Source of the DNA: Desulfobulbaceae bacterium
GTDB taxonomy: Bacteria > Desulfobacterota > Desulfobulbia > Desulfobulbales > Desulfocapsaceae
Assembly (NCBI GenBank): GCA_008933635.1
Contig: WBUQ01000001.1
Location: 62,001-126,000, forward strand
DNA: 64,000 nt
Reading direction: 5' to 3'
Shown here: in pieces, positions 5,501 through 58,556 of the stretch
Numbering within the stretch: position 1 is the stretch's first letter
Layout of the letters: each line of letters starts with the position of its first letter
Notes under the pieces: model-generated
What the model saw: the letters and a program-made list of their open reading frames with translations, nothing else
What the model was told of the DNA's origin: nothing
Database searches by the model: none
Position numbers and translations under genes: made by a program

Positions 5501-5504
5501 TATT

Positions 5505-6284
5505 CTAATTCCCCTGTTGTGCCAGAAATTCGCTGGCGAGAGCAGTGTAGGATTTCGCGCCAGCGGACATACTGTCGTAGTCAAATATTGCCTGCCCATG
5601 GCTGGGGGCCTCACTTAACCGAACATTTCGTGGTATCACTGTCTTAAACAACTGATTGGAAAAATGTCTGGAAATTTCTTCTGCGACTTGATGGGTAAGT
5701 TTGTTTCTTTTATCAAACATGGTTAAAAGTAGACCTTCGATGTACAGATCAGGATTAAACGACTTTTTAACCGAACGGATTGTGGTAACAAGTTGAGCTA
5801 AACCTTCCATTGCAAAGTATTCACACTGCATTGGAATAAGAACAGAATCGGCAGCCGTCAAAGCGTTGACAGTGAGAAGCCCCAGTGAAGGTGGACAATC
5901 GATGAGTATATAATCGTACGCCGAACAAGCATTATCTGAAAGCACAATATCCAGTTGTTTTTCTCTCTTTTCAAGAGAAATCAGTTCAATTTCTGCGGCT
6001 ACCAGGTCGATATTCGTTGGAATGATGTCGAGAAAAGTGTTGGTGGTGTGTCGAATTATTGACCCAACAGGAGCTCCGGCCGTGAGTGCCTGGTAAAAGT
6101 GGTCAGTGTTTTTTGGAACCAATATGCCTAGCCCGCTGGATGCATTTCCCTGGGGATCTGAGTCCACCAGAAGTACCTTGATCTTTTTCAGGGCTAAAGC
6201 AGCTGCGAGATTGATCGCGGTTGTTGTTTTTCCGACACCACCCTTTTGGTTGGCGATTGCAATTATTTTTCGTTTTGTCTTCAT
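5505..6284 (-). CDS. parA: Chromosome partitioning ATPase ParA/Soj
   Basis: ParA is a deviant Walker-type ATPase that forms the DNA-bound gradient moving ParB-parS complexes. The 259 residues carry KGGVGKTTT (deviant Walker A), LLVDSDPQGN (Walker A') and ILIDCPPSLG (Walker B). It is translationally coupled to parB, with 4 bases between stop and start. A parS site lies about 175 bases upstream of its start, the usual chromosomal arrangement. Confidence 0.97.
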   Translation of the reverse strand: MKTKRKIIAIANQKGGVGKTTTAINLAAALALKKIKVLLVDSDPQGNASSGLGILVPKNTDHFYQALTAGAPVGSIIRHTTNTFLDIIPTNIDLVAAEIELISLEKREKQLDIVLSDNACSAYDYILIDCPPSLGLLTVNALTAADSVLIPMQCEYFAMEGLAQLVTTIRSVKKSFNPDLYIEGLLLTMFDKRNKLTHQVAEEISRHFSNQLFKTVIPRNVRLSEAPSHGQAIFDYDSMSAGAKSYTALASEFLAQQGN

Positions 6285-6459
6285 TCTTTATCCCAAAAAA
6301 ATCCGAAGTTGATGTTTTTTTCTTATACCATCTTGAACGTGCAAACAACAGTAAAACTCGAGGTACGGTGATGTTCAAGTTCATCATACATGGTGGGGAA
6401 ATTTCCAAACCGTGGTATGAAGGTTTTGTTTTCTTAAGAACTCAGAGGCGTTTTGAAAA

Positions 6460-45710: not shown

Positions 45711-45740
45711 TTGACTGGAAGGGAAGAGGTACGGTATAAG
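45711..45740 (+). promoter_or_regulatory. Promoter of the left tRNA-Leu copy
   Basis: TTGACT (45711-45716), 18 bases, then TATAAG (45735-45740). The right tRNA-Leu copy shares the -10 box but has TCTGAT at the -35 position, so only the left copy keeps a full promoter. Confidence 0.75.
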
Positions 45741-45749
45741 TTTGCCCGA

Positions 45750-45836
45750 GCCGGAGTGGTGAAACTGGTAGACGCACTGGACTCAAAATCCAGCGGGGGC
45801 AACCCCGTGTCGGTTCGACCCCGACCTCCGGCACCA
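45750..45836 (+). tRNA. tRNA-Leu (CAA anticodon), left copy
   Basis: The acceptor GCCGGAG pairs with CTCCGGC, CCA is encoded, and the anticodon loop CTCAAAA gives CAA. A long variable arm is present (class II). The copy at 58417 differs at one position in the T-loop (C here, T there). Confidence 0.96.
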
Positions 45837-45845
45837 GGATTAAGC

Positions 45846-45882
45846 AAGCGGGATCTCAATGTAATTTGGGGTCCCGCTTTTT
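45846..45882 (+). terminator. Terminator of left tRNA-Leu
   Basis: Stem AAGCGGGA with TCCCGCTT and a T run follow the tRNA by 10 bases. It is duplicated after the right copy. Confidence 0.8.
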
Positions 45883-45921
45883 GCTTTTGCCTCATATTCT
45901 GCTGTGGGTGAGTTAACGATA

Positions 45922-45935
45922 GGCTCACAGTAGGC
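45922..45935. repeat. Candidate integrase arm-type site, left end
   Basis: GGCTCACAGTAGGC is identical to the motif repeated in tandem just upstream of the integrase at the right end (58273-58302). Confidence 0.5.
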
Positions 45936-45962
45936 TGCATTGTGAGCATTCATCCAACAGAT

Positions 45963-46250
45963 TCATGATGCAGTATTCAGCGTGTTATCACCTCCCTTTG
46001 TAATTGCTTCTTGAACTCGATTTGATGTCTTGTCGCCTATTTCCTTGACCAGTGCAAGGGAAAATTTGACGCAAATCTTTGAGACCCCATACGGTCCCTC
46101 TTCCTCGCGGACTTCCCCCCGGCCACCGCCCCTGCGGATCGAATCGTGTGGTCCAGCATGATTCCTTGCTGACCTGCCTTGATCCTCAGTTATTTTTTCC
46201 TGCTGTTGGCACCTCAAGGCCACTCTCGGAAACCAGAACGCCCATAACAT
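45963..46250 (-). CDS. Doubtful hypothetical ORF at left end of element
   Basis: The 95-codon frame has a low-complexity arginine/glycine-rich middle and no recognised motif. The last 40 residues (ICVKFSLALVKEIGDKTSN) are more protein-like. It may be a relic of a gene whose 5' part was lost; there is no good ribosome binding site. Confidence 0.2.
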   Translation of the reverse strand: MLWAFWFPRVALRCQQQEKITEDQGRSARNHAGPHDSIRRGGGRGEVREEEGPYGVSKICVKFSLALVKEIGDKTSNRVQEAITKGGDNTLNTAS

Positions 46251-46264
46251 CAGTACTCCCGATC

Positions 46265-46861
46265 CTAGAGGCAGAGTTTGAGGTATGCGTCCTTGATCTC
46301 GTCAGGTTGGATGCACAGGTAGTCCAGTGTCTGCCTCTGGGTTGAATGGTTGAACATCATCATGAGTTCAGGGATGGAGGTATTCAACTGGGTTCTCTGA
46401 TGATAGCCGAAGGTCTTCCTCAGCGTGTGACTTCCGTAGTTGCCTTGGAGGTTTATCTCTGCGCACCATGACTTGACCAAGCGATTGACTGAAGGCACCG
46501 TCAGCACACCACGCTGTCCCTTGAATAGATAGTCGCCTTCTTCATAGTGCGTCGCGTGAGTGAGCTTCTGGATAGCTTCAATCGCAGATTGATTGAGGGA
46601 GATCCTTCTGCTCTTTCCAGTCTTTTTTTCTTTAAGGATCAGTTCACCGCCAACTGACAGTCCTGCAACCTGATCATACTTGATGCTCAACAGATCACCT
46701 GCCCTGAGGTTCGTATTGATCCCCAGGGTGAAGAGGCAGTAGTCCCTAGGTTTGTCTCTCAGTAACTTCTTGATCGCCTGGATGTCCTTGAGGGTTCTAA
46801 TCGGATCGACCTTGATCTGAGCACCTATGGCCGGTCGGTTGGTGTTCTCGCCTTTCTTCAA
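46265..46861 (-). CDS. Short tyrosine recombinase (catalytic domain only)
   Basis: The 198-residue protein holds the catalytic domain without an N-terminal core-binding domain. Tyrosine recombinase residues are R53 (NLRAGDLL), a lysine in KEKKTGKSRRI, H145 and R148 (SHTLRKTFGYH), H172 (MFNHST) and the nucleophile Y181 (TLDYLCI). Short recombinases of this form occur on phages and plasmids. GTTAA-type repeats lie just upstream (46877-47029). Whether it acts on the element or is a leftover is unknown. Confidence 0.83.
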   Translation of the reverse strand: MKKGENTNRPAIGAQIKVDPIRTLKDIQAIKKLLRDKPRDYCLFTLGINTNLRAGDLLSIKYDQVAGLSVGGELILKEKKTGKSRRISLNQSAIEAIQKLTHATHYEEGDYLFKGQRGVLTVPSVNRLVKSWCAEINLQGNYGSHTLRKTFGYHQRTQLNTSIPELMMMFNHSTQRQTLDYLCIQPDEIKDAYLKLCL

Positions 46862-46876
46862 TGTGTCCTCCCTGGA

Positions 46877-47029
46877 ACTCGTTAAGTTATATCGCCATAT
46901 ACATTTTTACTTAACATCAAGTCAAGGGGAGATTTTGCCAGCAAGAGTGCAATTTGACCTATCGCTTTGATATACGGTCGAATACCAGGAAATCACACTT
47001 GTTAACTTTTCCTCATTTGTTAACGAGTT
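46877..47029. repeat. Cluster of GTTAA(C/G) repeats upstream of the short recombinase
   Basis: ACTCGTTAAG at 46877 and its inverted form GTTAACGAGT at 47020 bracket ACTTAAC (46909) and GTTAAC (47002). The arrangement suggests protein-binding sites. The rest of the 630 bases between 46862 and 47493 holds only the 31-codon ORF listed below. Confidence 0.4.
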
Positions 47030-47073
47030 TGGCGTACCTCCATTGAGGCCTCTGTACTCGTTCAGGAGATATT

Positions 47074-47169
47074 ATGGGGAGGGGCGTGTTTGCGGGACTA
47101 ACTCTGCATCGGATCAGACGAGCAAATCACTTCTTATCGATGCGAATGGAAGTAATCTTTGCGAAATAA
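47074..47169 (+). CDS. Possible 31-residue basic peptide
   Basis: The ATG at 47074 follows an AGGAG site by 7 bases and encodes a basic peptide (GVFAGLTLHRIRRANHFL). It lies in an otherwise gene-free stretch. The start signal is good but composition alone does not prove it is translated. Confidence 0.25.
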   Translation: MGRGVFAGLTLHRIRRANHFLSMRMEVIFAK

Positions 47170-47493
47170 ATGAATTGAAATATCAGGGAAATACAATACA
47201 AGCCACCTCCCAGTAGGGAAGGCTGACCAAATGGGCATCAGACCCCACAGCTCCATCGACCATTAAAGAACCCAAACACCTCTCGGGGGACATTCAAGGA
47301 AACCCTTGCACCTTGTCTAATGCTGGCCAGCTACCAGTGTCCACCTCCAACCCGAGAGGCTTTTACCAACGCAAGGACCATTACAATTCCAACACAAGCA
47401 CCATAGGAGATCCTTTCGCCACATTGAGTGGTCTGGGGGAAGGTGCGTAATCAACGCCGGGAGTACCGGCAATCAACTGAGCAAGGAACCAGA

Positions 47494-48840
47494 ATGAAGA
47501 AACCGAAGATTCAAGTCATTGATGCAGTAATGGGGACAGGGAAAAGCACCTGGATCATTAAGAATATGATCAAGAACCACAGCGAGAAGTACGTAGTGGT
47601 TCTGCCTCTGTTGTCAGAGGTGGAGCGATACCGGATCGCCCTGAAAGATCACAGGGCTGTCTATGCACCTGACCCTGAGGAGATCGATTCACCGACCATC
47701 CAGACAAAACTGGATGCATTCAAGGAGAGACTCAAAAACGGTGCAGAGGTAATTGTAACGACACACGCCCTGTTCAGTCTCTGGGATCAGGAGTGCTTCG
47801 ACCATATCAAGGACCATGGGTATATCTGCATTCTGGATGAAACTGTGGACCTTGTGCAGGAGACACACATAAAAAACGATGACTATCAGATGCTCCTCAA
47901 CTCGGGATACATCGAGGAGGAGAGTTACCAAGGCAACGAGAACCTGAAGTCAATCCACAGCACTCCGAAGACTTCCATGTATGACGGTGAATTCTCAGGG
48001 TTCATCAAACATGCACTCCTTAACAACCTGATCAGAATGGATGGGAACATCTGCATCAGGACAATCAAGCCGGAAAACATCATCGCCTTCAGGCACTGCT
48101 ACGTGTTGACTTACATGTACCCAGGGTCACAGATGGATTGCTGGTTCAAACTTTATGGGGTTGAGGTCAACCACAAGACACTGGTCCGGGATGCCCTTAT
48201 GGGAGATCTCCATTTGGCAGACCACCCTGGGTTCTACTCTGGCGCACAGTTCGCGGACCTGATCACTTTGGAGAGATCACAGAAAATGCTGGAGGTTGGC
48301 GCAAGAACACGGAAGAAGACCATCCCTCTGTCAAATAATGATTTCGGTTCGATGGATCACCGGCGATGGGAACAACTTGCAAATAACCTCGTAAATTTTG
48401 CCCGCCATAAGACTCTGAAGTTCATCAATGATGCCATTGGGGACGATGTCAGCCACCCAGGGTATTATTTGCTGTGGACTGTAAAGAACCAGTTCAGGTC
48501 GAAGTTTGAGGAAAAGCTGAGGTATAGACAAGTCCCTGGTTTCGATGGACCGGAGAGGGAGATCTTCCTTCCACATAATAGCAGGGCTACAAACGACTAC
48601 GCGCACAAGGCGTGTCTGGCTTACATGACAACTCCTATGCTCCGGGTGCCGATTGCCAAGTTCTTCAAATCCTGCGGTCTCGATTTCAACGACGAATTGT
48701 TCATGCTCTCGACCCTCCTGCAGTGGGTTTGGCGGTCACGCATCAGGAACCTTCAGGAGATCCTCCTATACATTCCTTCGGAACCGTTGCGATGTCTGTT
48801 CAGTCAGTGGATGAAAGGAGAGGTGGTTGTTAGGGTTTGA
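47494..48840 (+). CDS. Phage-type P-loop NTPase, helicase-like
   Basis: From the ATG at 47494 (AAGGAA site) the 448-residue protein has a Walker A motif at residues 12-20 (VMGTGKSTW) and a Walker B-type YICILDET. HALFSLWDQ lies in the position of motif Ia/Ib in superfamily 2 proteins. The C-terminal block LLQWVWRSRIRNLQEILLYIPS resembles phage-encoded helicase-like proteins. It probably serves replication or DNA processing of the element; the family is recognised only by pattern. Confidence 0.65.
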   Translation: MKKPKIQVIDAVMGTGKSTWIIKNMIKNHSEKYVVVLPLLSEVERYRIALKDHRAVYAPDPEEIDSPTIQTKLDAFKERLKNGAEVIVTTHALFSLWDQECFDHIKDHGYICILDETVDLVQETHIKNDDYQMLLNSGYIEEESYQGNENLKSIHSTPKTSMYDGEFSGFIKHALLNNLIRMDGNICIRTIKPENIIAFRHCYVLTYMYPGSQMDCWFKLYGVEVNHKTLVRDALMGDLHLADHPGFYSGAQFADLITLERSQKMLEVGARTRKKTIPLSNNDFGSMDHRRWEQLANNLVNFARHKTLKFINDAIGDDVSHPGYYLLWTVKNQFRSKFEEKLRYRQVPGFDGPEREIFLPHNSRATNDYAHKACLAYMTTPMLRVPIAKFFKSCGLDFNDELFMLSTLLQWVWRSRIRNLQEILLYIPSEPLRCLFSQWMKGEVVVRV

Positions 48841-49586
48841 AAATCTTGCCATTTTTCTCCGGCAAACTCTGATTTTTCACTATTAATATCATGCTCTTAA
48901 GTCGCTCATCCTTAAAAGGGAATCTTCATCAAGGTTGATCCAGAGACCACCACGATGGAGCAGAAGGCTGTTGCTGGTAAAGCATCATCGATAATCAGAG
49001 GAATACGGTAATACCTCCTATGTGTCCATCATGGGGTCACCCCCTTACCTGTAGTGGACATATGGGGAGGCATTTCGCTGCATTCCCCTCAAAGCCATTA
49101 GCATCGGAGATCCTCGGGAGACCACCCAGGCGAATAGAGTTCACCAGAGCAGTCCTTGAGAATTATCATGGTATCTGCTGGGATACCAACGGTATGTCTC
49201 TCCAGTTTCCGCTGGGCAGACACCCAGATTTATTGATTTGATATTGAGGCAATTGAAAGCGATAGGGGGGTCAATATTCAACGCTGATTGACACATCAAG
49301 ATATAGGGAATCAAAGAGTCTGGTGGATTCTTGATGGCACTTATATCAGTGGATCTCTCCCTCCTCACACTTCGTTCCTGCGGAACTCGGTTCGCTCGGG
49401 TCACTGCGTGAGGAGCATTCATGTCTTGAGATTCTGGCACTGTATCTCCACATTTTCCAATAACCAGAACGATAGGACTCACTCGATCAGTTTGTCTCGG
49501 GTCAAAGGCAGTTCATTTACCTGATACCCACTTGATACCCATAAAGCGTGCAAACGCTCTGCATACAAGCAAGGAGCAACACCTAC
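48841..49586. other. Gene-poor stretch of the element
   Basis: About 750 bases with no convincing coding frame. Short frames at 49020-49241 and 49288-49524 lack start signals and protein-like composition. The one clear structure is the hairpin at 49361-49415. Confidence 0.5.
49361..49415. repeat. Long imperfect palindrome inside the element
   Basis: A perfect 8-bp outer stem CTCCTCAC/GTGAGGAG encloses smaller GC-rich arms (CGTTCCTGCGGAACTCGG, GGTTCGCTCGGGTCACTGCG). The form is like REP-type or structured phage intergenic palindromes. Confidence 0.5.
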
Positions 49587-50186
49587 ATGGAGTCTACAGA
49601 CAGAAGGAAAGGTCAACTGGCTATGTCCAAAAGACGTTTCCGCTTCAAGAATATGGTGAGAGACAGGATTGCCAAAGGGAACAGCTACTGTCTCCCCATG
49701 GACATTTTGGTTGAAACGTTCATGGAACAGCCAGAATCGACAAGAGTACAGGGAATCGCATTCCTTAAAGGTTTCGAAGTAGCGGCGAATATCGATGATA
49801 CCCAAATTTCTGATGCAGATACCCAAAAAGCAGATGAAGTGGATGCCCAGTTCTCCCGGTCTGATGCCCAGAAATCATTCATCCCCCTGGGGACATCACG
49901 GGACGAACTCACAGGGATGCTCATAGACTTCTTCAAGGCCAGAGCGATACCGTCAGCTACCGTCAGAGGGACCATGCTTGAGGTCGCCCAGCGATATTCC
50001 CCCATGGAAGCAGGTGATTTTCCCATGTTCATTTGTAATGTCATCAATGAGATCCCCCCGGACACCCAATGCTTGGCAAATGCACTGCTGGGAGGTCTGC
50101 GAAAGGCAGAATACGGGGACACAGCAATTTGCAACATCCTTGATTCCATAGCTGACGGTATCCGCAGCCCTGATAAAACAGGTTGA
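49587..50186 (+). CDS. Hypothetical element protein
   Basis: The 199-residue protein (ATG at 49587, AAGGAG site 10 bases upstream) has a basic N terminus (MSKRRFRFKNMVRDRIAKG), an acidic aspartate/alanine-rich middle (DDTQISDADTQKADEVDAQF) and a helical C terminus. I do not recognise a family. The basic start could bind nucleic acid. It lies alone between the gene-poor stretch and the small-gene cluster. Confidence 0.55.
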   Translation: MESTDRRKGQLAMSKRRFRFKNMVRDRIAKGNSYCLPMDILVETFMEQPESTRVQGIAFLKGFEVAANIDDTQISDADTQKADEVDAQFSRSDAQKSFIPLGTSRDELTGMLIDFFKARAIPSATVRGTMLEVAQRYSPMEAGDFPMFICNVINEIPPDTQCLANALLGGLRKAEYGDTAICNILDSIADGIRSPDKTG

Positions 50187-50483
50187 TACCCAGTTACCAC
50201 TCGTAGTGATTTAACGGAAATCCAACCAAGGATCCTTCTCTTCCACCAAGCAGGGGGAGAATGGTCCCTGGTCGGATGCCAAGTCCCACTTCCGCATTCC
50301 AAGCATTCTGCAGTTCCTCCTCTCCACAGGTATCCACTTGCCATCTGTAGTTTTCGCTACTCGATAAAGTCCTCCCCAGGCAAACCCATAACTGACTAGA
50401 CCCAACTCCTCTGCTGCCCTGAAGATGAAGATCAACTTATCTGGTTCTTCGCCCAGGATCTGAGCATCTGCATCGGGTACGCC

Positions 50484-50750
50484 TTGAACTACTACGGCAA
50501 CTTCGCAGACAGGATCCCGGCACACATGCAGGGCCTCGTCCACATCAACCACGGCAAACGGGCCTATCGGGTCTACTCCCTGGAGGGTGCCCTCACCTTC
50601 CTGTCGCACGTCAAGGACAACACCGAGGACTTCAAGATGTGGCTGCTGACGCACGTCTATCCGGCAACCGTGATGAGACTGTCTGATAGACTCGCCATGG
50701 CCCAGTATCTGCTCGACCTTGCAATCCAGATCGAAGGAGAAGAGGCATGA
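50484..50750 (+). CDS. Hypothetical phage protein, probably missing its 5' end
   Basis: The reading frame is open from just after a TAG at 50397 and is protein-like from about 50430 (WFFAQDLSICIGYALNYYGNF), yet no good start codon lies upstream of the TTG at 50484. It continues HMQGLVHINHGKRAYRVYSLEGALTFL and overlaps the next start by 4 bases. The sequence immediately upstream carries a coding-like frame on the opposite strand, so a rearrangement may have removed its beginning. Confidence 0.5.
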   Translation: MNYYGNFADRIPAHMQGLVHINHGKRAYRVYSLEGALTFLSHVKDNTEDFKMWLLTHVYPATVMRLSDRLAMAQYLLDLAIQIEGEEA

Positions 50751-51022
50751 CATTCACAACAGCACAGCTGAGAGCAATCGAACAGGCAATCGGTAGGGAT
50801 GCCCAGGTCACAGTGGTGGTCGGTGGCGGTTCATTCGATTACATGCGGTTCGACTGTGGGCCTGCCTACCTTGAGGTCTCTGCAATGCATGGGGGACAGA
50901 GGGTTAAATCAAGAGTCTCTGTCTCTCCCTATAGTCACATACCAGTATCCCACTTAGCTGAGAAACTGGTGATGGATATTAACTGCCACATCATGCGCGA
51001 AGAATTCCGGAGGGCATTCTGA
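50747..51022 (+). CDS. Hypothetical element protein
   Basis: The 91-residue protein starts at an ATGA overlap with the preceding gene and ends 1 base before the next gene. It has a glycine-rich strand (VTVVVGGGSFDYMRFDCG) and a helical C terminus (LAEKLVMDINCHIMREEF). The tight spacing supports expression as part of a small phage operon. No family is recognised. Confidence 0.6.
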   Translation: MTFTTAQLRAIEQAIGRDAQVTVVVGGGSFDYMRFDCGPAYLEVSAMHGGQRVKSRVSVSPYSHIPVSHLAEKLVMDINCHIMREEFRRAF

Positions 51023-51023
51023 A

Positions 51024-51230
51024 ATGAAGATCAAAGCGAAACTGGAGTTCATGCCCCGCAGGGAAGATGGATGCTGCAAATACTGTGCGTTCTACGGTGT
51101 TCCCGGTGGACCGTGCATGAAACCATCGACAGCCGAGAGTTGTTCCGGTGGATTCTTTGTGATCACCGAGGCGAAACTGAGGAAGAACAAGAAACCGATA
51201 AAACCCAAACGCAGTCTGGAGGATTTCTGA
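51024..51230 (+). CDS. Small cysteine-rich hypothetical protein
   Basis: The 68 residues contain four or five cysteines (GCCKYCAFYG, PGGPCMKPS, AESCSGGFF), arranged as a possible small zinc-binding fold. A basic tail follows (KLRKNKKPIKPKRS). It lies in the compact gene run 50484-51563. Confidence 0.58.
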   Translation: MKIKAKLEFMPRREDGCCKYCAFYGVPGGPCMKPSTAESCSGGFFVITEAKLRKNKKPIKPKRSLEDF

Positions 51231-51231
51231 G

Positions 51232-51405
51232 ATGAACAAGAAGGAGATAGGCATCCTGGGGTTCCTCACCTGTCTGCTTGTGGCTGCTTGGGTGGGGTTC
51301 GTGTACTCCTGCTCTGCCGCGATTGACTCAGCAGGAGGAGTCCATGGGATTGCCGTGAGCGTGGGCAAGGAAGTCAAGGCCATCAAGAAGGAGATCAACG
51401 AATGA
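51232..51405 (+). CDS. 57-residue single-pass membrane protein
   Basis: The ATG at 51232 lies 1 base past the previous stop. The N-terminal hydrophobic segment (IGILGFLTCLLVAAWVGFVY) is followed by a cysteine that could be a lipid anchor and a lysine-rich C terminus (GKEVKAIKKEINE). Its stop overlaps the antirepressor start. The function is unknown. Confidence 0.55.
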   Translation: MNKKEIGILGFLTCLLVAAWVGFVYSCSAAIDSAGGVHGIAVSVGKEVKAIKKEINE

Positions 51406-51980
51406 ACGACCTGACCGTAATACAGGAAACCATGAGCAGCAAACAGATCATGACACTGCTCAACGAGGGCAAGCCCAAGGAAGAACACTTCCGGCACGAC
51501 AACATCAAGGTCTCAATGGAAAGGCTGCAAGATCGAGGAGTTATATCGTTTACTGCAATGTAGGAACCGACTCCCGGTGGCGGAAAACCCTTGACTACCT
51601 ACCACGTCAACGAACGGGACTCCTACATCACGGTCGCCCAGTTGTCTCCGGAGTTCACGGCACGACTGGTGGACCACTGGAGGGAACTGCGGGGTGAGAA
51701 CGTGGAACTGAAGGCACTGGTGGCAGCACAGGGCAAGAAGATCGACATGCTCTGCGACAAGATCCTGATGATCGCCACGCCACCGGCATCCTCTGACACG
51801 GTTGCAGCTGAACGCTCATCGTCAAAACGGAAGCATGTCTACTGCTATGATGTCATCGAGGTCAAGGCCCTGCATAACCGAGGACTGTCCGAGATGCAAA
51901 TGGCAGCAGAGACTGGGTTCAGTCCACTCACAATCCGCCGCATCGTCCGTGGCGAACGTGACCACCTACTCGTACCATAA
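51402..51980 (+). pseudogene. Rha-type phage antirepressor interrupted by an in-frame amber codon
   Basis: The frame runs unbroken from ATG 51402 to 51980 except for a TAG at 51561. The first part (ETMSSKQIMTLLNEGKPKEE, FRHDNIKVSMERL) is the Rha/antirepressor DNA-binding start. The part after the TAG continues in the same frame with EPTPGGGKPLTTYHVNERDS and YITVAQLSPEFTARLVDHW, the matching second half. A CAG-to-TAG change explains this best. The downstream part could still be translated alone from the TTG at 51591, and ends with a helix-turn-helix-like tail (EMQMAAETGFSPLTIRRIV). Confidence 0.8.
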
Positions 51981-52008
51981 ACAATACAATTCTAAGGAGA
52001 TACAACTC

Positions 52009-52245
52009 ATGATCAAATTCGCAGTCGCCACCTATGGCACCCTCTTCCTCTTCGTCGGGATCTGCATGTTCATTGTCGGTTCCTTCACATGGCCCTACAT
52101 CATTGGTGCCTGGGCACTGTACTTTGGTAAGGCCGTGTTCATCTCATGGTGGAAAGGTGGACTCATTGGCTTGGTGCCAGGGCTGGGGCCGATAGGCATC
52201 CCGGTAGCCATAATCACTTGGATATGCATGATGCTACTCATCTAA
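52009..52245 (+). CDS. Small two-to-three-helix membrane protein
   Basis: The 78-residue protein (ATG at 52009, AAGGAGA site) is nearly all hydrophobic: ATYGTLFLFVGICMFIVGSF, WALYFGKAVFISWW and GLGPIGIPVAIITWICMMLLI. It resembles small phage membrane proteins. The next gene's ribosome binding site begins right after its stop. Confidence 0.62.
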   Translation: MIKFAVATYGTLFLFVGICMFIVGSFTWPYIIGAWALYFGKAVFISWWKGGLIGLVPGLGPIGIPVAIITWICMMLLI

Positions 52246-52257
52246 AGGAGACACCCC

Positions 52258-52776
52258 ATTCTAATCTTTGACCTCGAAACCAACGGACTGTTGGAGGAGG
52301 TCAGCAAGATCCACTGCCTAGTAATCTACGATACCAAATCTGATACACTCCACATCTTCGACAAGGCACATCGGCCAATAGCTGATGGGATCCGGATGCT
52401 TGAGAAAGCTCTCAAGATCGCCGGTCATAACATCATCGGGTACGACCTCCCGGTAATCCGTAAGCTCTTCCCAGAGTTCTCCTTCACGGGGGAAGCAGTA
52501 GACACCCTCGTCATCTCCAGGGTGGCATTCACAGACATCAAAGCAGGCGACTATGGCAGGTTCCAGCGGGGGCAACTCCCTGGGAAATGCATTGGTTCCT
52601 ATGCGCTTGAGGCTTGGGGATACCGACTTGGGGAACTGAAGGGGGACTATGGGAAGACCACGGACTGGAAGGAATGGAATCCGGACATGACCAAGTACTG
52701 TGTCCAAGATGTGCGAGTGACAGAGAAACTCTATAACAGACTGAAGAAAGAATGTACTCTCGTTTCAAGTCCTTGA
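52258..52776 (+). pseudogene. T7-like DNA polymerase, 3'-5' exonuclease part only, truncated by the CRISPR array
   Basis: The first 165 codons match the exonuclease domain of T7-type DNA polymerase: IFDLETNGLLEEVSKIHCLV, GHNIIGYDLP, DTLVISRVAF, GQLPGKCIGSYALEAWGYRL and VQDVRVTEKLYNRL. An AAGGAG site lies about 7 bases before an ATT codon at 52258, in the position of the usual start. The only standard start is an internal TTG at 52291. The last seven codons (CTLVSSP) and the stop are read from the terminal CRISPR repeat. The whole polymerase domain is absent. Confidence 0.82.
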
Positions 52777-52995
52777 TGAGACAAATAACCCACCCCCACG
52801 ACCTCGGCAGGTCGGTGTGCCAACGCACTCTCGTTTCAAGTCCTTGATGAGACGCAAGTAACGCTCGGAGTATGCGAGGAAGCAGGCGTGCCAACGCACT
52901 CTCGTTTCAAGTCCTTGATGAGACAGGAAGGGGAAAATACCGGAGTGGAAGGAGTCGTGTGCCAACGCACTCTCGTTTCAAGTCCTTGATGAGAC
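52756..52995 (-). CRISPR. Type V-B CRISPR array, three spacers
   Basis: Three full 37-base repeats (52817-52853, 52888-52924, 52959-52995) and one terminal repeat with only 27 conserved bases (52756-52782) flank three 34-base spacers (52783-52816, 52854-52887, 52925-52958). Read on the minus strand, the repeat begins GTCTCATCAAGGACTTGAAA and ends GCGTTGGCAC, the TGGCAC end typical of type V-B. The degenerate repeat is therefore the leader-distal one. It lies at the junction with the polymerase fragment. cas12b is upstream on the same strand. Confidence 0.95.
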
Positions 52996-53163
52996 TGTAA
53001 CCGCGTACAAGGCCAGTTTCAGTGCCCTGCAAGGAGTGAATTCGCGAACCTCCCTAATGTTGCCTAAGTCTCAATACCAAAGATGAGAAATGATCGAACT
53101 TTCATCCTGATTTAGAGGCGTTGAACAGTTTGCGAACCTCCTAGAGTTTTTCTGTTTAATCCC

Positions 53164-53270
53164 GTCTCGCGCAAGAACTTGAAAGAGTATGTGTTTTGAT
53201 CGGTGATGGAGGTTTATATTGCCCCCATCGAGGCACATCGACCAACTATGCTTGCCCCTATAGAGCAATT
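53164..53270 (-). ncRNA. Candidate tracrRNA of the Cas12b system
   Basis: On the minus strand the 5' part reads ATTGCTCTATAGGGGCAAG, close to the start of known type V-B tracrRNAs. GTGCC at 53232-53236 is complementary to the GGCAC repeat end. ATTGC (53265-53269) can pair with GCAAT (53218-53222). The 3' part (53164-53200) is complementary to the repeat over most of its first 33 bases. Ends are approximate; no clear T-rich terminator is seen after 53164. Confidence 0.75.
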
Positions 53271-53284
53271 ACAAAAACAGTATC

Positions 53285-53306
53285 CTAGCAACCAAAGGAG
53301 CGCAAG
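53285..53306 (-). promoter_or_regulatory. Possible tracrRNA promoter
   Basis: On the minus strand TTGCGC lies 17 bases before TACTGT, about 7 bases ahead of the inferred tracrRNA start. Both boxes are weak matches, and the site overlaps the cas12b stop region. Confidence 0.25.
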
Positions 53307-53308
53307 TG

Positions 53309-56300
53309 TTATTGCTTTATTGCTGATTTGATCTTAGCCCTGGTCATCCCCCAGAAGGTTTTCATTGGAAACCACAGATCACTGGGCAAGGTTATTCCTG
53401 AAGGATCTCGGAAAAAGGTTGTGTATTCATTGCTGAGTTCGAGCGCTTCCTCTTCAAGAAGGGCAATATCCAACAAATCCTCATTGACCTCTTCCTTTTG
53501 GGCGACTGACGATCTACTGATGGACTCCCATTTTGATGCTGTAATACGCTCCCATCGGCAAGACCCTGATTCATGACCTGTTGGGATCAAATATCCGCAA
53601 CCACTCATGGCGCCTTGCAACCTTTTTCCAATGGATCGAGGGACCCAAATCTCATCTCCTTTCAATGTAATCTTCCGTGCAGGAATGCGGATCGCTTCTC
53701 CATGTCTCAACCAGAACCGGCGTTGCAGATTCTGAGCTGCGTTAATGTCAGCATGTATTCTTGAAATACCACCGTTTCCATCACAAGAAACAAAGATTTC
53801 ACCGCCACCCCTAGGGATAAGATCACCGGCCTTGCAGATTCCGAAATCAATGTCTGGATTCTCCTTTTGGAGGGATTCAATTAGAAACTGGTTTGACAGA
53901 TCTTCTTTTCTCAGGGCATGACAACGAATGCCTGGCGTTGCAAGTCTTGCATGATATCGACTTGAGAAGGCGGCAGAGGTATCGCATACATGAATCCCAT
54001 ACAGTTCCCCCTGCATTGCGACTTCAAGAGGGATCGATCTATGCGACCACTTCATAAGTTGACTGTTCTCTCTTCTTGGCCTATCAGTCTGCATGAGGTA
54101 GCGACTGAGATCCTCAAAGAGAATCACTTGACAGGGAGCATATGATTTCTTCCAATTCCCTTGATTGTCTCTCAAGAATCCTCTGGCAGATTGGACGAGG
54201 AGGTCAGCACCCGTTTTCAGACGATCTCTTTTAACACTGTCCAAATGTTGCAATAGACGGGTTGCGAAGACACCCCTCTTGACCCGATCAGCCCGCCTGA
54301 TTTCTCCGCTAAATCTACCTAAGTGACTCCATGAATGCAGAAAGCGTCTTGTATCCTCAAGATGTTGAATAGCCCACATCGTTTTACCAGCATACTTAAG
54401 ATTCGAATTGAGACGGTTCGCTCGTCTCCATTCCCGTACTTTTCTCCCAAATGCATTCCTTAGTGCCTTTAGAGACTCCTTGATCTTCCCCTCCCAAAGA
54501 GGCTGAGAAACAGATGTGGAGGTGACAAGGCCTTTGTATATAGTTCTTTCAAATTCAAAGATGTCCTGATCTTGGCAAAGTAGTTCTAAAATATCTTTTC
54601 GATCTTCTGGGTCTATCCCTGCAAGAGCATATATTTTTCGGTATCTCCCAAGGACTCTCCGCATTGCTCTTAATTCTGCATCCTTTGTCTTTTGCAGTTG
54701 CCTTCCCTTATTGCCGACATCTTCATCAGGGAGGTTGAGCATGAAGGAGCGTTCATGATTGGCCCATAGATTGAGTCCTTCAATTTCAAATGACATCCCT
54801 GAGGTTGGTTTATGTTCAGAAAGTTCAAAAACTGAACAAGCGCCGAAGGATCTGATGCCGAGATCGACTGAAAGGACTCTCAGGCCAGATACCACCGATA
54901 ATTTGTGTTTGCTATTGCCAGATGCAGAAGAGAAGTGTGAAATAGCCTGTGGTCTCTTTGGAGTCCATCCGTCAGGGAGAATACGCTCTATATCCAATGA
55001 GAGCTTGAGAAATACAGGTCCAATATCCCCATGCTCAACTGATTCAAAGCGTCTGTTCTTGAGATATGGCCAGTCCATGAGGAGATCAGCAGCGCCAACT
55101 TTGCTCCTGTATTCTTCATCAAGAACAGATTGATGAGTGATAGTAACTTCAGACTTTGTCTTTGAAATCTGAGCAACCTTGAATTGATCTGATGGAGCAA
55201 GGGGAAATTCAAATGTTTGATCGATGAGTTTGCCTGATTCGGATTTGCACAATAGCGGAAGCTGAACATGAAGTCCTTCCACAGGAGAGTGGGTGATTAC
55301 ATAATTCTTAAAATTACTTCCCCCCTCAGCCTCCCACTGTATTGACCTCGGATGCTCGATTGGATCAGGCAGAGTCATATACGCCGTTTCCCTGGAACGC
55401 TCAAGGAGACCTCTCATTGCATTCATTTTGGCGAATATGCTAAGTGCATCTTCATCAGCGTCCCAAACTGCATGGTTTTCTGGTTTTGCTAGCCATAGGA
55501 AGAGATGGGGATCTCCAAACCGTCCTCCTTTCTTTGTTTGCTCCTTGCTCGCTATGGATTTCAGGGAATCGTATGTCCTTGTGGTGTTTTTCAGCCACTT
55601 ATCACGAAGATCCTCCCAGCCTCTGATCTGTCTTCTGGTAATCCGAAATGGGCGCTGCATTGGAAGGCTTCTATTTTGGCCGAGTTCTTTCTCTTGCCGC
55701 TCTTTCTGATACTTTTCAAGAGTTTCAAAGCAAATAATGAGTGAAGGTGTTGTGTGTTTTTCACTGAAGCTTTCAACCCTACGTTTTCTTTCAAAGTGAT
55801 CTTCTGCTGATTTAATGCACCAACTTTCCCAGGAGAGCATGTGTCCTACTGCAAGGCGAAAAGCAAGGCGATCCCAGCGGCTCAAAGATCCATCAGACCC
55901 TTCAAGTTTGTCTGCAAAGTAGGCAGGGAAGAGAGGCAAGACGCCCATTTCCATCAATTGACATATCACCTTTGGGGCACCCTCAATTTCTTTGATCTTC
56001 TTGTCTATATCCTCAGAGAACGATTGGGGCCAAGATGGGTCACCGGTGAGGAAAAGTTTTTTCCATTTAGGGGGTGCGCCGGTTTCAGAAAGTCGTTTAA
56101 TACCTGCAGATGTTGCGGACCATTTTTTGGCATTTTCAACGGCTTGGGGATCTCCTGCTTTTAATTGTCCAACCCAATCAGGTATTGTGCCAAGCTTTTC
56201 AAATATTGAAAGGTAGCCGATACTAATTGGGTCAGTTAAAGGGCTTAGAAAGCCATTTGCTTGTTGGGCATTGCCGTCCTCCTTGACTGATGAGGGTACA

Positions 56301-56605
56301 ATGAATTCGTAAAATTTCCTGACAAGTGAATTCAATTCAGCATCAGTACCAAGAGGCTCAGGGAGACCGTTCTCTAACTGTGCTCTTCTGATTCTGGATA
56401 GCCGTTCCTGTTGAATGCTTTCTTTAGAGACAACGTCCTTGTCTGAAATGTGGTATCCAAGCCCTCTCATTATCAGGAGTTGTTCCTCATAGTAACGTAC
56501 AGCATCATTAACAGCTGCATGAGTGGTCCATATGCTTTGCCTAGATTTTTCACCTTGGGTGTTGCGGGAGATAACTATCTTGAGATTGATTGACCGGACA
56601 GGCAT
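53309..56605 (-). CDS. cas12b: CRISPR-associated effector nuclease Cas12b (C2c1)
   Basis: This RNA-guided nuclease cleaves DNA with a single RuvC active site. At 1098 residues it is near the family's usual length. RuvC residues are D581 (LRVLSVDLGIRSFG), E831 (CQVILFEDLSRYL) and D953 (RIHADINAAQNLQRRFW). Type V-B features include the N-terminal VNDAVRYYEEQLLIMR, the REWRRANR bridge-like region, ENSQLMKWSHRSI and the Nuc-lobe AAFSSRYHARLATPGIRC. It is read toward the tracrRNA and array. The start has a GAGGAT site. No adaptation genes are near. Spacing to the tracrRNA is about 40 bases. Confidence 0.95.
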   Translation of the reverse strand: MPVRSINLKIVISRNTQGEKSRQSIWTTHAAVNDAVRYYEEQLLIMRGLGYHISDKDVVSKESIQQERLSRIRRAQLENGLPEPLGTDAELNSLVRKFYEFIVPSSVKEDGNAQQANGFLSPLTDPISIGYLSIFEKLGTIPDWVGQLKAGDPQAVENAKKWSATSAGIKRLSETGAPPKWKKLFLTGDPSWPQSFSEDIDKKIKEIEGAPKVICQLMEMGVLPLFPAYFADKLEGSDGSLSRWDRLAFRLAVGHMLSWESWCIKSAEDHFERKRRVESFSEKHTTPSLIICFETLEKYQKERQEKELGQNRSLPMQRPFRITRRQIRGWEDLRDKWLKNTTRTYDSLKSIASKEQTKKGGRFGDPHLFLWLAKPENHAVWDADEDALSIFAKMNAMRGLLERSRETAYMTLPDPIEHPRSIQWEAEGGSNFKNYVITHSPVEGLHVQLPLLCKSESGKLIDQTFEFPLAPSDQFKVAQISKTKSEVTITHQSVLDEEYRSKVGAADLLMDWPYLKNRRFESVEHGDIGPVFLKLSLDIERILPDGWTPKRPQAISHFSSASGNSKHKLSVVSGLRVLSVDLGIRSFGACSVFELSEHKPTSGMSFEIEGLNLWANHERSFMLNLPDEDVGNKGRQLQKTKDAELRAMRRVLGRYRKIYALAGIDPEDRKDILELLCQDQDIFEFERTIYKGLVTSTSVSQPLWEGKIKESLKALRNAFGRKVREWRRANRLNSNLKYAGKTMWAIQHLEDTRRFLHSWSHLGRFSGEIRRADRVKRGVFATRLLQHLDSVKRDRLKTGADLLVQSARGFLRDNQGNWKKSYAPCQVILFEDLSRYLMQTDRPRRENSQLMKWSHRSIPLEVAMQGELYGIHVCDTSAAFSSRYHARLATPGIRCHALRKEDLSNQFLIESLQKENPDIDFGICKAGDLIPRGGGEIFVSCDGNGGISRIHADINAAQNLQRRFWLRHGEAIRIPARKITLKGDEIWVPRSIGKRLQGAMSGCGYLIPTGHESGSCRWERITASKWESISRSSVAQKEEVNEDLLDIALLEEEALELSNEYTTFFRDPSGITLPSDLWFPMKTFWGMTRAKIKSAIKQ

Positions 56606-56680
56606 AGTAGATCCTCGGCTGAAGTGATTCAGAGCGGTTCTTTGGCCTAGAGATTTATAATAATCCTATGATAATGTGGG
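56606..56680 (-). promoter_or_regulatory. Candidate cas12b promoter region
   Basis: On the minus strand a TATTATAAA segment near 56655-56665 lies about 50 bases before the start codon, with a weak TTAAAC -35 match some 18 bases upstream. GAGGAT precedes the ATG by 6 bases. Confidence 0.3.
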
Positions 56681-56823
56681 GTTTAAGCCTAACACGGCAC
56701 TATTCATATTTGTATCATTATTTGCCACTGTCGAAAAGTATCCTTCCGATTTTCATCATGACGATGATCTGGATAAGCAAGGATTTGATGTAGGGCCACA
56801 TTCAAGTCAATCCTGTCGCCAGT

Positions 56824-57015
56824 TTGGTATTTTCTCTAATGGGATACATCGATCAGGGCGTTACCGAGCTTGACCAAGAGAAACTCCCCAGCCTTCTGGA
56901 ATTGAAGTACCACTCGGTCAACGATGCAGTGACGCAACTGGGGAGTGTCACGGAGATCAGGGATGTTTTCGTCAACTTCCAGGGATATCTCTATCAGCCG
57001 CTTGATCGTCAGTAG
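56824..57015 (+). pseudogene. Remnant of the 3' end of a type I restriction hsdR gene
   Basis: The frame encodes DQGVTELDQEKLPSLLELKY, then HSVNDAVTQLGSVTEIRDVF and VNFQGYLYQ. This matches the extreme C terminus of EcoEI-type HsdR proteins (LPxLLxLKY ... LGxxxxIRxxFxxFQxYLY). The remaining ~900 residues of HsdR are absent, and no hsdM or hsdS is present. It is a relic. The other sequence between 56681 and 57132 shows no gene. Confidence 0.6.
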
Positions 57016-57132
57016 CTCAACAGATAGACTTTGATTCTCCAGCTTTGAGACCCATCCTGGGGCAGCAAGCTTACTCTGCCTCAGAACAGGGAGAGCAAGA
57101 GCATTGAGTCCAAGCCCTCCCCTGTGGTAGTC

Positions 57133-58272
57133 TCAGTAATCCACTTCCTGAAGAGCCCTTTTCATTGCCACAAGGTTATCGCGGGAATGCCACTGGATGT
57201 ACTGTGCTGTGATATCGTTGCTCTTGTGATTCAACAGCCGTTTCACCATGAGGTAATCGACACCGACCTCAGAGGCTCTTGTAGCAAATGTCCTGCGTAA
57301 GTCATGGCATTTGAAGGTGACCCCCAGGGCTTTCGACAGACGCTTCAGTGTGGGTCTTTCGTCGCTGATATTGCTGTCATCTTTTTGGGGTGAAGGGAAG
57401 ACATACACAGTATCGTTGCTGGCTTTCTTCAGGATCTCCTGAATGGGGTCTGTAACTGGCAAGTAATGTGGTCTGTGGTTTTTGACATCCCGGATGACAA
57501 TGCAGGACACCTCATTCACCGTCTCGATGTCCTCCCATTTCAGCCGCAATGCTTCGTTCTTCCTGAGACCAGTGTATAGCATCAGGTGAACCGCGAGGGT
57601 CATTGGATGGGTTTCTTTCCAGGTGATCTGCAGGAGCTTCCTTGCCTGATCTGCGGTGAGGTAGTGCTCACGTTTAACGATGCTCCGGTCAATGCGCTTC
57701 TGCTTCAGGACGTTTACCGGGTTGTTCTCAATGATTTGATCGGCACAGGCATAGTTCATCAGGGCAGACAATATCCTCATGACTTTGGTCGCCTGTGAGT
57801 ATGTGGGTTTTCCTCCGTTGACACCCTTGTCCCTGATCTGGCAGAACCGCTTTTCAACCATCTCCCTCGTGATGGAGACCACAGGTTTATCCAGCCAGTC
57901 CTGCAAGTAGAACTGAATGACCTGTGTGTGGTTCTTCAGGGTGCTCGGTTTGAGGGTTACCTTCGAGGTGTAGGTCGTGAACAGCTTCCCGAGTGAGTAC
58001 TGCCGCCTGATGGATTCCTGAAGCTGACCTGTCTGGACGAGATTCAGGAACTGAATTGCTTCTTTCTCTGCTTCAGGAATCGAGAGCGCAGGGAATGTTC
58101 CCAGTGTTTTCCTATAGTTGGTCCCTTTGTATTTGGTCTCAGCAAAGAACTTGATGACTCCTGATGTATTCACCTTGACCCCAAAACCTCGGAGTGTAGT
58201 AGCCCGGATGAAATAAGGTGTTTCTAATGGTTCTAGTCTTTTCAGTACGTTAAGAGTAATATTTCGTCTCAT
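57133..58272 (-). CDS. int: Tyrosine-type site-specific integrase
   Basis: The 379-residue protein has an N-terminal arm-binding domain (TTLRGFGVKVNTSGVIKFF), a SAM-like core-binding domain (about residues 95-185) and a catalytic domain with R237 (YTGLRKNEAL), H323 and R326 (CHDLRRTFATR), H349 (LLNHK) and nucleophile Y358 (ITAQYIQ). It is full length and lies 144 bases from the right tRNA-Leu copy, as expected for the enzyme that integrated the element. Tandem CACAGTAG motifs overlap its start. Confidence 0.94.
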   Translation of the reverse strand: MRRNITLNVLKRLEPLETPYFIRATTLRGFGVKVNTSGVIKFFAETKYKGTNYRKTLGTFPALSIPEAEKEAIQFLNLVQTGQLQESIRRQYSLGKLFTTYTSKVTLKPSTLKNHTQVIQFYLQDWLDKPVVSITREMVEKRFCQIRDKGVNGGKPTYSQATKVMRILSALMNYACADQIIENNPVNVLKQKRIDRSIVKREHYLTADQARKLLQITWKETHPMTLAVHLMLYTGLRKNEALRLKWEDIETVNEVSCIVIRDVKNHRPHYLPVTDPIQEILKKASNDTVYVFPSPQKDDSNISDERPTLKRLSKALGVTFKCHDLRRTFATRASEVGVDYLMVKRLLNHKSNDITAQYIQWHSRDNLVAMKRALQEVDY

Positions 58273-58302
58273 TACAGTAGGCTCACAGTAGGCCCACAGT
58301 AG
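58273..58302. repeat. Candidate integrase arm-type sites, right end
   Basis: Three tandem copies of a roughly 11-base unit (TTACAGTAGG, CTCACAGTAGG, CCCACAGTAG) lie immediately upstream of the integrase start. One copy also occurs near the left end at 45922. Confidence 0.55.
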
Positions 58303-58390
58303 CTTTTTGAGGCAAAATTGTGCTTATTCTGGCAGTCTGGCCATACCGGAGAAACCTCGTGTTTTATACTCTAACTATCTGATTTCAAAC

Positions 58391-58548
58391 AAGAGGTACG
58401 GTATAAGATTGGCCGAGCCGGAGTGGTGAAACTGGTAGACGCACTGGACTCAAAATCCAGCGGGGGCAACCCCGTGTCGGTTCGACTCCGACCTCCGGCA
58501 CCAGAATGAAGTAAGCGGGATCTCAATGTAAATTGGGATCCCGCTTTT
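58391..58548 (+). repeat. Right att-side direct repeat (tRNA-Leu with flanks)
   Basis: This is the partner of the repeat at 45724-45882. It includes the -10 box, the tRNA and the terminator but not the -35 box. Confidence 0.85.
58417..58503 (+). tRNA. tRNA-Leu (CAA anticodon), right copy
   Basis: Same length and fold as the left copy with one T-loop difference. CCA is encoded. Its upstream sequence comes from the element and lacks a -35 match, so expression is uncertain. Confidence 0.93.
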
Positions 58549-58556
58549 GTTTTTTC
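58513..58556 (+). terminator. Terminator of right tRNA-Leu
   Basis: Perfect stem AAGCGGGATC/GATCCCGCTT followed by a T-rich tract. Confidence 0.85.

What the first reader, a model, noticed from the sequence alone, without database searches (positions are those of the whole stretch)
45750..58503. Stand-alone type V-B CRISPR-Cas12b module on a tRNA-Leu-integrated, phage-derived element
Seen: Cas12b with intact RuvC D581/E831/D953, a tracrRNA candidate and a three-spacer array lie inside a 12,667-base element flanked by duplicated tRNA-Leu genes, with integrase at one end. No cas1, cas2 or cas4 occurs in the window. Known: type V-B loci usually carry a cas4-cas1 fusion and cas2. Inference: the system moves with the element and may be used against competing phages or elements, as seen for other mobile CRISPR systems.
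Basis: partly seen in the sequence, partly recalled or inferred. Interest (0 to 1): 0.92.

Follow-up and report, generated by a model that had tools for sequence, protein, structure and literature searches.

The report
Adaptation-free Cas12b carried by integrative element
A 12.7-kb mobile DNA element sitting in a bacterial tRNA-Leu gene carries a minimal CRISPR-Cas12b DNA-cutting system with no spacer-acquisition genes, and its closest relatives are equally stripped-down Cas12b systems in several bacterial phyla.

Summary
Window 45724-58555 is an integrated element bounded by a 165-nt direct repeat (93%) with two intact tRNA-Leu(CAA) genes and an integrase at the right end. It carries cas12b (intact D581/E831/D953), a tracrRNA whose fold recurs with covariation in four relatives, and a 3-spacer array. 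No cas1/cas2/cas4 was found nearby; the only Cas1 found in the genome belongs to a type I-E operon, and no Cas4 was found. Mobility is supported: a same-genus genome shows the site without the element, and two same-family genomes carry 7.6- and 8.5-kb elements with 52-53% identical integrases in the same tRNA-Leu. Of 257 class genomes searched only this one has Cas12b over cut-off. No spacer target was found, so use against rivals is inference. A new variant of type V-B, not a new kind: an inactivated V-B3 on a conjugative plasmid and a Cas12b2-like protein in a jumbo phage are published.

The parts
45724..45888 (+). left end (attL): direct repeat with intact tRNA-Leu(CAA) 45750-45836
   Evidence: ARAGORN; 165-nt direct repeat, 93%
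45917..45939 (+). possible integrase arm-type site (CAGTAGGC motif), left end
   Evidence: motif at 45928 and, by the integrase, at 58275 and 58286; inference; the motif was not found beside the integrases of L201-L203
46265..46861 (-). small tyrosine recombinase, 198 aa
   Evidence: PF00589 1.5e-15; phrog_216 4.5e-44
47428..48840 (+). YonV-like protein (phrog_2467, function unknown)
   Evidence: phrog_2467 5.4e-52; 29% to yonV of phage SPBc2; homologues in elements L201 and L203
49548..51230 (+). small uncharacterised frames of the element (212, 88, 91, 68 aa)
   Evidence: open frames; no family match
51591..51980 (+). antirepressor/HTH-like phage regulator
   Evidence: phrog_63 6.3e-8
52258..52776 (+). 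split T7-type DNA-polymerase 3'-5' exonuclease; its last codons are formed by the degenerate terminal CRISPR repeat; start codon at 52258 (ATT) is my reading
   Evidence: phrog_17 and phrog_403; 79 of 79 closed viral homologues end within 16 aa of the match
52746..52995 (-). CRISPR array: repeats at 52746, 52817, 52888, 52959 (37 nt), spacers 52783-52816, 52854-52887, 52925-52958 (34 nt)
53164..53245 (-). tracrRNA core with anti-repeat (the RNA may begin further upstream, towards cas12b)
   Evidence: duplex energy; position; conserved covarying helices in 5 loci
53309..56605 (-). cas12b, 1098 aa, RuvC residues intact
   Evidence: NF033949 628 bits; PDB homologues 5wti, 5wqe, 5u30
56824..57015 (+). 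possible remnant of the C-terminal end of a type I restriction HsdR
   Evidence: PF08463 E 0.018, 15.6 bits, below the cut-off of 24; weak
57133..58272 (-). tyrosine integrase, 379 aa
   Evidence: PF00589, phrog_1 2.5e-52; 52-59% to integrases in L201, L202, L203
58391..58555 (+). right end (attR): direct repeat with intact tRNA-Leu(CAA) 58417-58503

Best explanation
A type V-B effector module without adaptation genes (cas12b, tracrRNA, 3-spacer array) travels as cargo of a 12.7-kb integrative element. The element's integrase recombines it at tRNA-Leu(CAA), leaving an intact tRNA gene at each end (supported by the repeats, a relative without the element and same-site relatives; excision not shown). 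Cas12b pairs with tracrRNA and crRNA and, having an intact RuvC site, cuts DNA matching one of three guides (inferred from family knowledge and the conserved RNA). It has no genes of its own to add spacers; the host's type I-E Cas1-Cas2 serves repeats of different length and sequence, so the guide set is probably frozen or changed only by recombination or in another host (inference). The likely benefit is removal of rival phages or elements that match the guides (inference, targets unknown).
For: Anatomy. Catalytic residues. tracrRNA: 96.9% of 65 cells paired, 6 cells with two-sided changes, 0 of 500 shuffles reach the covariation score. Cas1 in the own genome found only on contig C51, beside cas3, a CT1978-type cas2 and a long array; no Cas4 found. 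G424 without the element; G397 tRNA-Leu without it. Same-family elements: G414, 93-nt repeats 8,460 nt apart; G426, about 120-nt repeats 7,586 nt apart, integrases 53% and 52%. Element GC 48.5% against 53.0% for the rest of the window, cas12b 45.3%. Tree: clade of 6 with 100/100 support, none with cas4-cas1 or cas2 found beside it.
Against: No target: spacer 1 has no hit in phages; 20-nt seeds of spacers 1 and 2 are absent from viral contigs; spacer 3's seed hits one viral contig over 20 nt only, the other 14 nt mostly mismatched and no TTN before it, about what chance would give; spacer 1 with up to 3 mismatches finds only the array in the own genome; spacers 2 and 3 were not searched there. 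The terminal repeat is degenerate. Some tracrRNA controls are weak: shuffles reach the number of pair types in 293 of 500 and the number of pairs with two-sided changes in 14 of 500, and the region folded alone is no better than shuffles. The right-hand chromosomal genes of the window lie on other contigs in G424 and G397, so only about 49 nt beyond the repeat support the right side of the empty site. The proposed arm-type motif does not recur beside related integrases. Expression and excision are untested.
Confidence: 0.72

Rival explanations
1. A decaying remnant: the module was once part of a full V-B locus, was caught in the element, lost adaptation, and now drifts with a shrunken array and no function.
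For: Only 3 spacers; degenerate terminal repeat; a possible hsdR remnant beside cas12b (below cut-off); an N-terminal Cas12b remnant on M. nodulans plasmid pMNOD02 shows that such decay occurs.
Against: 1098-aa frame intact with all three catalytic residues; three of four repeats 90-100% alike over the 42-nt reference stretch; tracrRNA fold kept; relatives without cas4-cas1 nearby have arrays of up to 26 repeats with distinct spacers.
Confidence: 0.17
2. Host defence that happens to be stored on a genomic island: guides against past phages, with no special role in competition between elements; spacers acquired in trans.
For: The same tRNA-Leu is a hot spot that holds a type I restriction locus in G412 and other integrases in G433 and G414. 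Distinct spacers in relatives imply acquisition at some time. The view that mobile-element CRISPR lacking adaptation may use chromosomal machinery in trans is in print (passage of PMC9071438).
Against: The only Cas1 found in this genome is of type I-E, with 28-29-nt repeats and 61-nt units, unlike the 37-nt V-B repeat and 71-nt unit.
Confidence: 0.4
3. A Cas12b repurposed for RNA-guided integration, like type V-K CRISPR-associated transposons.
For: Mobile setting, no adaptation genes.
Against: RuvC residues intact; no Tn7-type transposase family among the 11 frames tested; integration is explained by the tyrosine integrase and tRNA repeats.
Confidence: 0.02

Closest known systems
Type V-B1 CRISPR-Cas12b (Alicyclobacillus, Bacillus, Brevibacillus, Laceyella, Tuberibacillus loci)
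   Same: Cas12b over nearly full length (28-34% identity in the best segment); array downstream of cas12b; most repeats written out end in GGCAC or AGCAC
   Different: Those loci carry a cas4-cas1 fusion and cas2 right after cas12b; here none was found, and the locus is cargo of an integrative element
V-B3 / Cas12b3 with mini-array on an Actinomyces conjugative plasmid (PMC12669027; passages and figure legend seen)
   Same: A Cas12b variant on a mobile element with a short array
   Different: Cas12b3 is reported as RuvC-inactivated; this one has all three residues
Cas12b2-like protein in a landfill jumbo phage (PMC12607003; passage seen)
   Same: Cas12b-like effector on a mobile element
   Different: In that phage none of the arrays is reported near a cas gene; here array, tracrRNA and cas12b are together
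Stand-alone Cas12b in Geobacter sp. NC_groundwater_76 (L015), 48% identity
   Same: No cas4-cas1/cas2 found beside it; array directly after cas12b; same tracrRNA fold; lies 3' of a tRNA gene (Arg)
   Different: 26 repeats; I saw no integrase among its frames (by eye) and no second tRNA repeat
Type IV and V-M systems on plasmids (PMC11656645, passages) and an ICE-borne Cas9 system in Campylobacter (PMC8743540, search listing only)
   Same: CRISPR modules as mobile-element cargo
   Different: Other effectors; V-M does not cleave its target

Membership tests
Type V-B CRISPR-Cas | Cas12b effector over curated cut-off | tested here: met
   628 bits against 150
Type V-B CRISPR-Cas | RuvC catalytic triad (the roles of the residues are recalled) | tested here: met
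   D581/E831/D953 aligned
Type V-B CRISPR-Cas | tracrRNA with anti-repeat | tested here: met
   duplex -32.3 kcal/mol, covariation; transcription not testable
Type V-B CRISPR-Cas | CRISPR array with 36-37-nt repeats | tested here: met
Type V-B CRISPR-Cas | cas4-cas1 fusion and cas2 in the locus (usual; present in only a subset of type V subtypes) | tested here: not met
   none found near; the only genome Cas1 found is type I-E; no Cas4 found; so 'complete V-B system' is not claimed
Type V-B CRISPR-Cas | RNA-guided cleavage of dsDNA with a 5' T-rich PAM (recalled) | not testable with these tools
   no target found
V-B3 (Cas12b3) | inactivated RuvC | tested here: not met
   definition
tRNA-targeted integrative element | tyrosine integrase at an end, direct repeats including tRNA sequence | tested here: met
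tRNA-targeted integrative element | site without the element in relatives | tested here: met
   G424; right-hand support is short, about 49 nt beyond the repeat
tRNA-targeted integrative element | excision and transfer | not testable with these tools
   needs culture or reads
Phage satellite / prophage | packaging, capsid or satellite hallmark genes | tested here: inconclusive
   no structural family among 11 frames tested; other small frames not scanned
CRISPR-associated transposon (V-K) | Tn7-like transposase genes and inactive RuvC | tested here: not met

The most novel reading that the evidence does not exclude
A lineage of catalytically active Cas12b has given up its own adaptation genes and lives as a three-part cassette (cas12b, tracrRNA, array) that spreads between phyla by tRNA-targeted integrative elements, acting as a portable weapon with preset guides in conflicts between elements.
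Probability: 0.33. Interest if true: 0.72.

Novelty: new variant of a known kind. Interest (0 to 1): 0.6.

Why it matters
Cas12b is known mainly from loci with their own adaptation genes. An active-looking, adaptation-free Cas12b on a defined integrative element, with a relative lacking the element and same-site sister elements, gives a direct way to test what mobile elements gain from a cutting class 2 effector with preset guides. The clade also supplies compact, diverged Cas12b proteins (the window's is 28-34% identical, best segment, to Bacillota ones) with a recognisable tracrRNA. How arrays in genomes where no Cas1 was found (L017, L035 and L048; completeness not told) came by distinct spacers is an open question that these loci make testable.

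Tried and rejected
Truncated DNA polymerase: I first took the 52258-52776 frame for a T7-type polymerase cut off by the array. Rejected: 79 of 79 closed homologues (of 80 loci) end within 16 aa of the match, so it is a split exonuclease gene.

Spacer 1 aimed at the polymerase gene of a related phage: its translation resembles the exonuclease, but the DNA match has 13 of 34 mismatches, reached by 18.5% of shuffles within the element; the best place in 80 viral loci has 12 mismatches against a null mean of 12.2. Not supported.

Spacer targets of relatives: L015 array against phages, 4 records, all at E 0.6; the L019 spacer that meets a phage recT and an unannotated phage is GC-rich repeat-like sequence with 9 and 8 mismatches, rejected; L048 array against phages, none. 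A part of the L048 array against plasmids gave 14 records: spacer 5 shares its first 21 nt with a phage Gp37/Gp68-type gene on a Paraburkholderia plasmid, 10 mismatches overall, and 8 in a Cupriavidus one, without TTN next to it; left open. The window array gave 2 phage records of one phage at E 0.9 and 48 plasmid records, of which the 10 listed stand at E 10 and match mainly the repeat.

Second attachment repeat at L015, L019 and L035: only matches of 11-14 nt were seen (L015: its own terminator stem; L019: 11 and 12 nt; L035: 12 nt beside the tRNA), none at a plausible far end. Relatives of the L015 island without it: only its own genome matched and none of 192 class genomes at the strict limit; this shows nothing. 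YonV relatives in viral contigs: none confirmed. Rfam: only the two tRNAs at E up to 1. Folding of the tracr region alone is no better than shuffles (z -0.42). In one search the anti-repeat search stands above its null in the window and, just, in L015 (best -33.8 against null best -32.6), but not in L017, L019 and L048.

tRNA adjacency: counted by hand and typed into. Stand-alone loci with about 0.4 kb or more upstream: 3 of 7 (L015, L019, L035; not window, L016, L020, L048; L006, without a tRNA, left out as its status is unsure). Canonical with about 0.9 kb or more: 0 of 19 (L007-L009, L034 and L047, also without a tRNA nearby, left out). Fisher p 0.013, post hoc, kinship not corrected.

Papers: PMC6452270, PMC11656645, PMC12669027, PMC12607003 and PMC9071438 by passages only; all others by search listing. 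That this clade is not in print was judged only from the searches over an open-access library; it may be described elsewhere.
Full report
What is there. The element lies at 45724-58555. A 165-nt direct repeat (93%) holds an intact tRNA-Leu(CAA) at each end, spaced 12,667 nt. From left to right it holds a 198-aa tyrosine recombinase, a YonV-like protein of phrog_2467, small unknown frames, an antirepressor/HTH-like gene, a T7-type exonuclease, a CRISPR array, a tracrRNA, cas12b, a possible hsdR remnant and a 379-aa integrase. Its GC content is 48.5% against 53.0% for the rest of the window; cas12b is lower still, 45.3%.

Cas12b and its RNAs. Cas12b is full length, 628 bits in NCBIfam, with solved homologues 5wti, 5wqe and 5u30. 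The residues of D581, E831 and D953 are shared by 39, 38 and 37 of 39 other rows; L039 has E at the third, and the incomplete row L045 has gaps at the second and third. The array is on the minus strand, as cas12b is, with 37-nt repeats and 34-nt spacers. The intergenic stretch holds an anti-repeat (-32.3 kcal/mol; 20 shuffled repeats: mean -21.9, best -26.1). Upstream of it GGUCG...CGAUC encloses GUGCC, which can pair with the GGCAC end of the repeat, and an inner hairpin. The same arrangement occurs in L015, L016, L017 and L019: 63 of 65 cells pair, five pairs have two-sided changes, and 0 of 500 shuffles reach the covariation score. Against this, the number of pair types is reached by 293 and the number of two-sided pairs by 14 of 500 shuffles; the helices were drawn from these same five sequences; and the anti-repeat itself stood above its shuffled null in the window and narrowly in L015, not in L017 or L019.

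No adaptation genes. Cas4-Cas1, Cas2 and I-E Cas1 seeds find only a 14-residue match at E 0.55 in the window and 24 kb of adjoining contig. In the 4.55-Mb genome (96% complete, 240 contigs) Cas1 is found only on contig C51, beside cas3, a CT1978-type cas2 and an array of more than 50 repeats with 61-nt units, that is type I-E. No Cas4 was found. None of the 52 intervals cut from that array matches the window at 9 or fewer mismatches.

Mobility. All 60 family genomes searched have a match to the neighbouring transglycosylase, some only to weak paralogues; I looked at the tRNA-Leu site in seven. In G424 the joined flanks align as one stretch of 241 nt (82%), 101 nt past the tRNA; left flank plus element aligns 45 nt past it, within the repeat, so about 49 nt beyond the repeat carry the point; no element DNA or protein hit lies in the roughly 18 kb that follow. 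G397 has the tRNA-Leu followed by ordinary genes. G433 has another integrase directly after the tRNA and G412 a type I restriction locus. G414 and G426 carry elements with integrases 53% and 52% identical to the window's, flanked by repeats holding part of the tRNA-Leu (93 nt, spaced 8,460; about 120 nt, spaced 7,586). By my reading these repeats share the anticodon region, which I take as the crossover zone. The G414 element also has the YonV-like gene, interrupted by an insertion sequence, and the G426 integrase has a stop. In G446 the contig ends too soon to tell. A more distant genome, G088, has a 59% integrase beside tRNA-SeC and a YonV-like gene. None of the three sister elements showed a Cas12b match (their genomes are also without a hit over cut-off, so far as they were among its 257). 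An integrase at the 1e-60 limit was found in 4 of 116 order genomes, own genome included. The window's right-hand porin gene lies on other contigs in G424 and G397 and was not found in G433 and G412, so a rearrangement has also occurred on that side.

Distribution and relatives. Of 257 class genomes searched one, this one, has Cas12b over the cut-off (G598 has a 75-position match below it). In the 395-genome phylum sample 7 do, own included. A named scan confirmed 99 relatives and kept 80 loci; I took 35 (L015-L049) and left out 45 (L050-L094), whose matches are weak and mostly centred on the RuvC region. With the window and four long forms, and L012 dropped as a copy of L039, the tree has 40 rows. 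The window joins L015 (Geobacter), L018 (Chloroflexi) and L016, L017, L019 (alphaproteobacteria) in a clade with 100/100 support, unresolved inside. No cas4-cas1 or cas2 was found beside any of the six. L039, L048 and L035 form a second such clade (100/100). The tree needs five changes of this state, four of them forced by well-supported branches. Limits: L018 ends inside cas12b, L031 and L020 hold about 0.5 kb downstream and L006 about 1.5 kb, so their status is less sure. Cas1 was found in 27 of 35 of these genomes; the eight without are L016, L017, L018, L020, L031, L035, L039 and L048, all among those without cas4-cas1 at the locus. The arrays read in six of these loci hold only distinct spacers. 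Cas12b was not found in phage records nor in viral contigs.

tRNA adjacency. In L015, L019 and L035 a tRNA gene lies 0.1-0.8 kb upstream of cas12b with its 3' end facing it; in L015 a small gene lies between. This is 3 of 7 stand-alone against 0 of 19 canonical loci with enough upstream DNA (p 0.013), counted by hand, noticed after the fact and not corrected for kinship. No second attachment repeat was seen there. It is a lead, not a result.

How it works. Integration at tRNA-Leu by the element's integrase is well supported. RNA-guided cutting is inferred from intact residues, guide RNAs and knowledge of Cas12b. What it cuts is unknown: searches with the spacers gave nothing convincing. A frozen guide set is inferred from the lack of matching adaptation genes.

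Known or new. A catalytically inactive V-B3 with a mini-array on a conjugative plasmid is published (PMC12669027, passages), as is a Cas12b2-like protein in a jumbo phage (PMC12607003, passage), and effector modules without adaptation genes are a general feature of mobile CRISPR (PMC9071438 and PMC6452270, passages). A V-B locus with adaptation genes, its cas12b annotated as two frames, is on an Alicyclobacillus dauci plasmid. I found no paper on an active, adaptation-free Cas12b in a tRNA-integrated element in the searches. I rate it a new variant of a known kind.

Noticed in passing
L003 (own genome contig C51) 10777-11601: A Bro-N (phage antirepressor-type) gene lies between cas5 and cas1 of the host's type I-E operon (PF02498 4.5e-13; cas5 by reading).
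   Followed up: partly
tRNA-Leu(CAA) beside the transglycosylase; L109, L110, L201, L202: The site is an integration hot spot: a different integrase, a type I restriction locus and two same-family elements occupy it in relatives; in L201 a second integrase gene (4952-6385) lies on the other side of the tRNA.
   Followed up: partly
L207 8001-8393 (Methylobacterium nodulans plasmid pMNOD02): An unannotated N-terminal Cas12b remnant, 45% identical over 137 residues, on a 458-kb plasmid, some 6 kb from transposase genes.
   Followed up: partly
L048 5795-5828 (third spacer of an acidobacterial stand-alone Cas12b array): Resembles the conserved ALDLMEEFRPL-type stretch of cas1 genes in three other loci with 8 of 34 mismatches. 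Weak: by my own estimate about 0.1 such matches are expected by chance; guides aimed at other CRISPR systems would be notable.
   Followed up: partly
L015 9334-9852: A small gene with weak similarity to PD-(D/E)XK nucleases (PDDEXK_5, 1.7e-4, below cut-off) lies between tRNA-Arg and the Geobacter stand-alone cas12b.
   Followed up: no
window 52783-52816: Spacer 3 contains a perfect 6-nt inverted repeat (CGACCT/AGGTCG).
   Followed up: no
window 56824-57015: Possible HsdR C-terminal remnant between cas12b and the integrase, perhaps from an earlier restriction cargo (below cut-off).
   Followed up: partly
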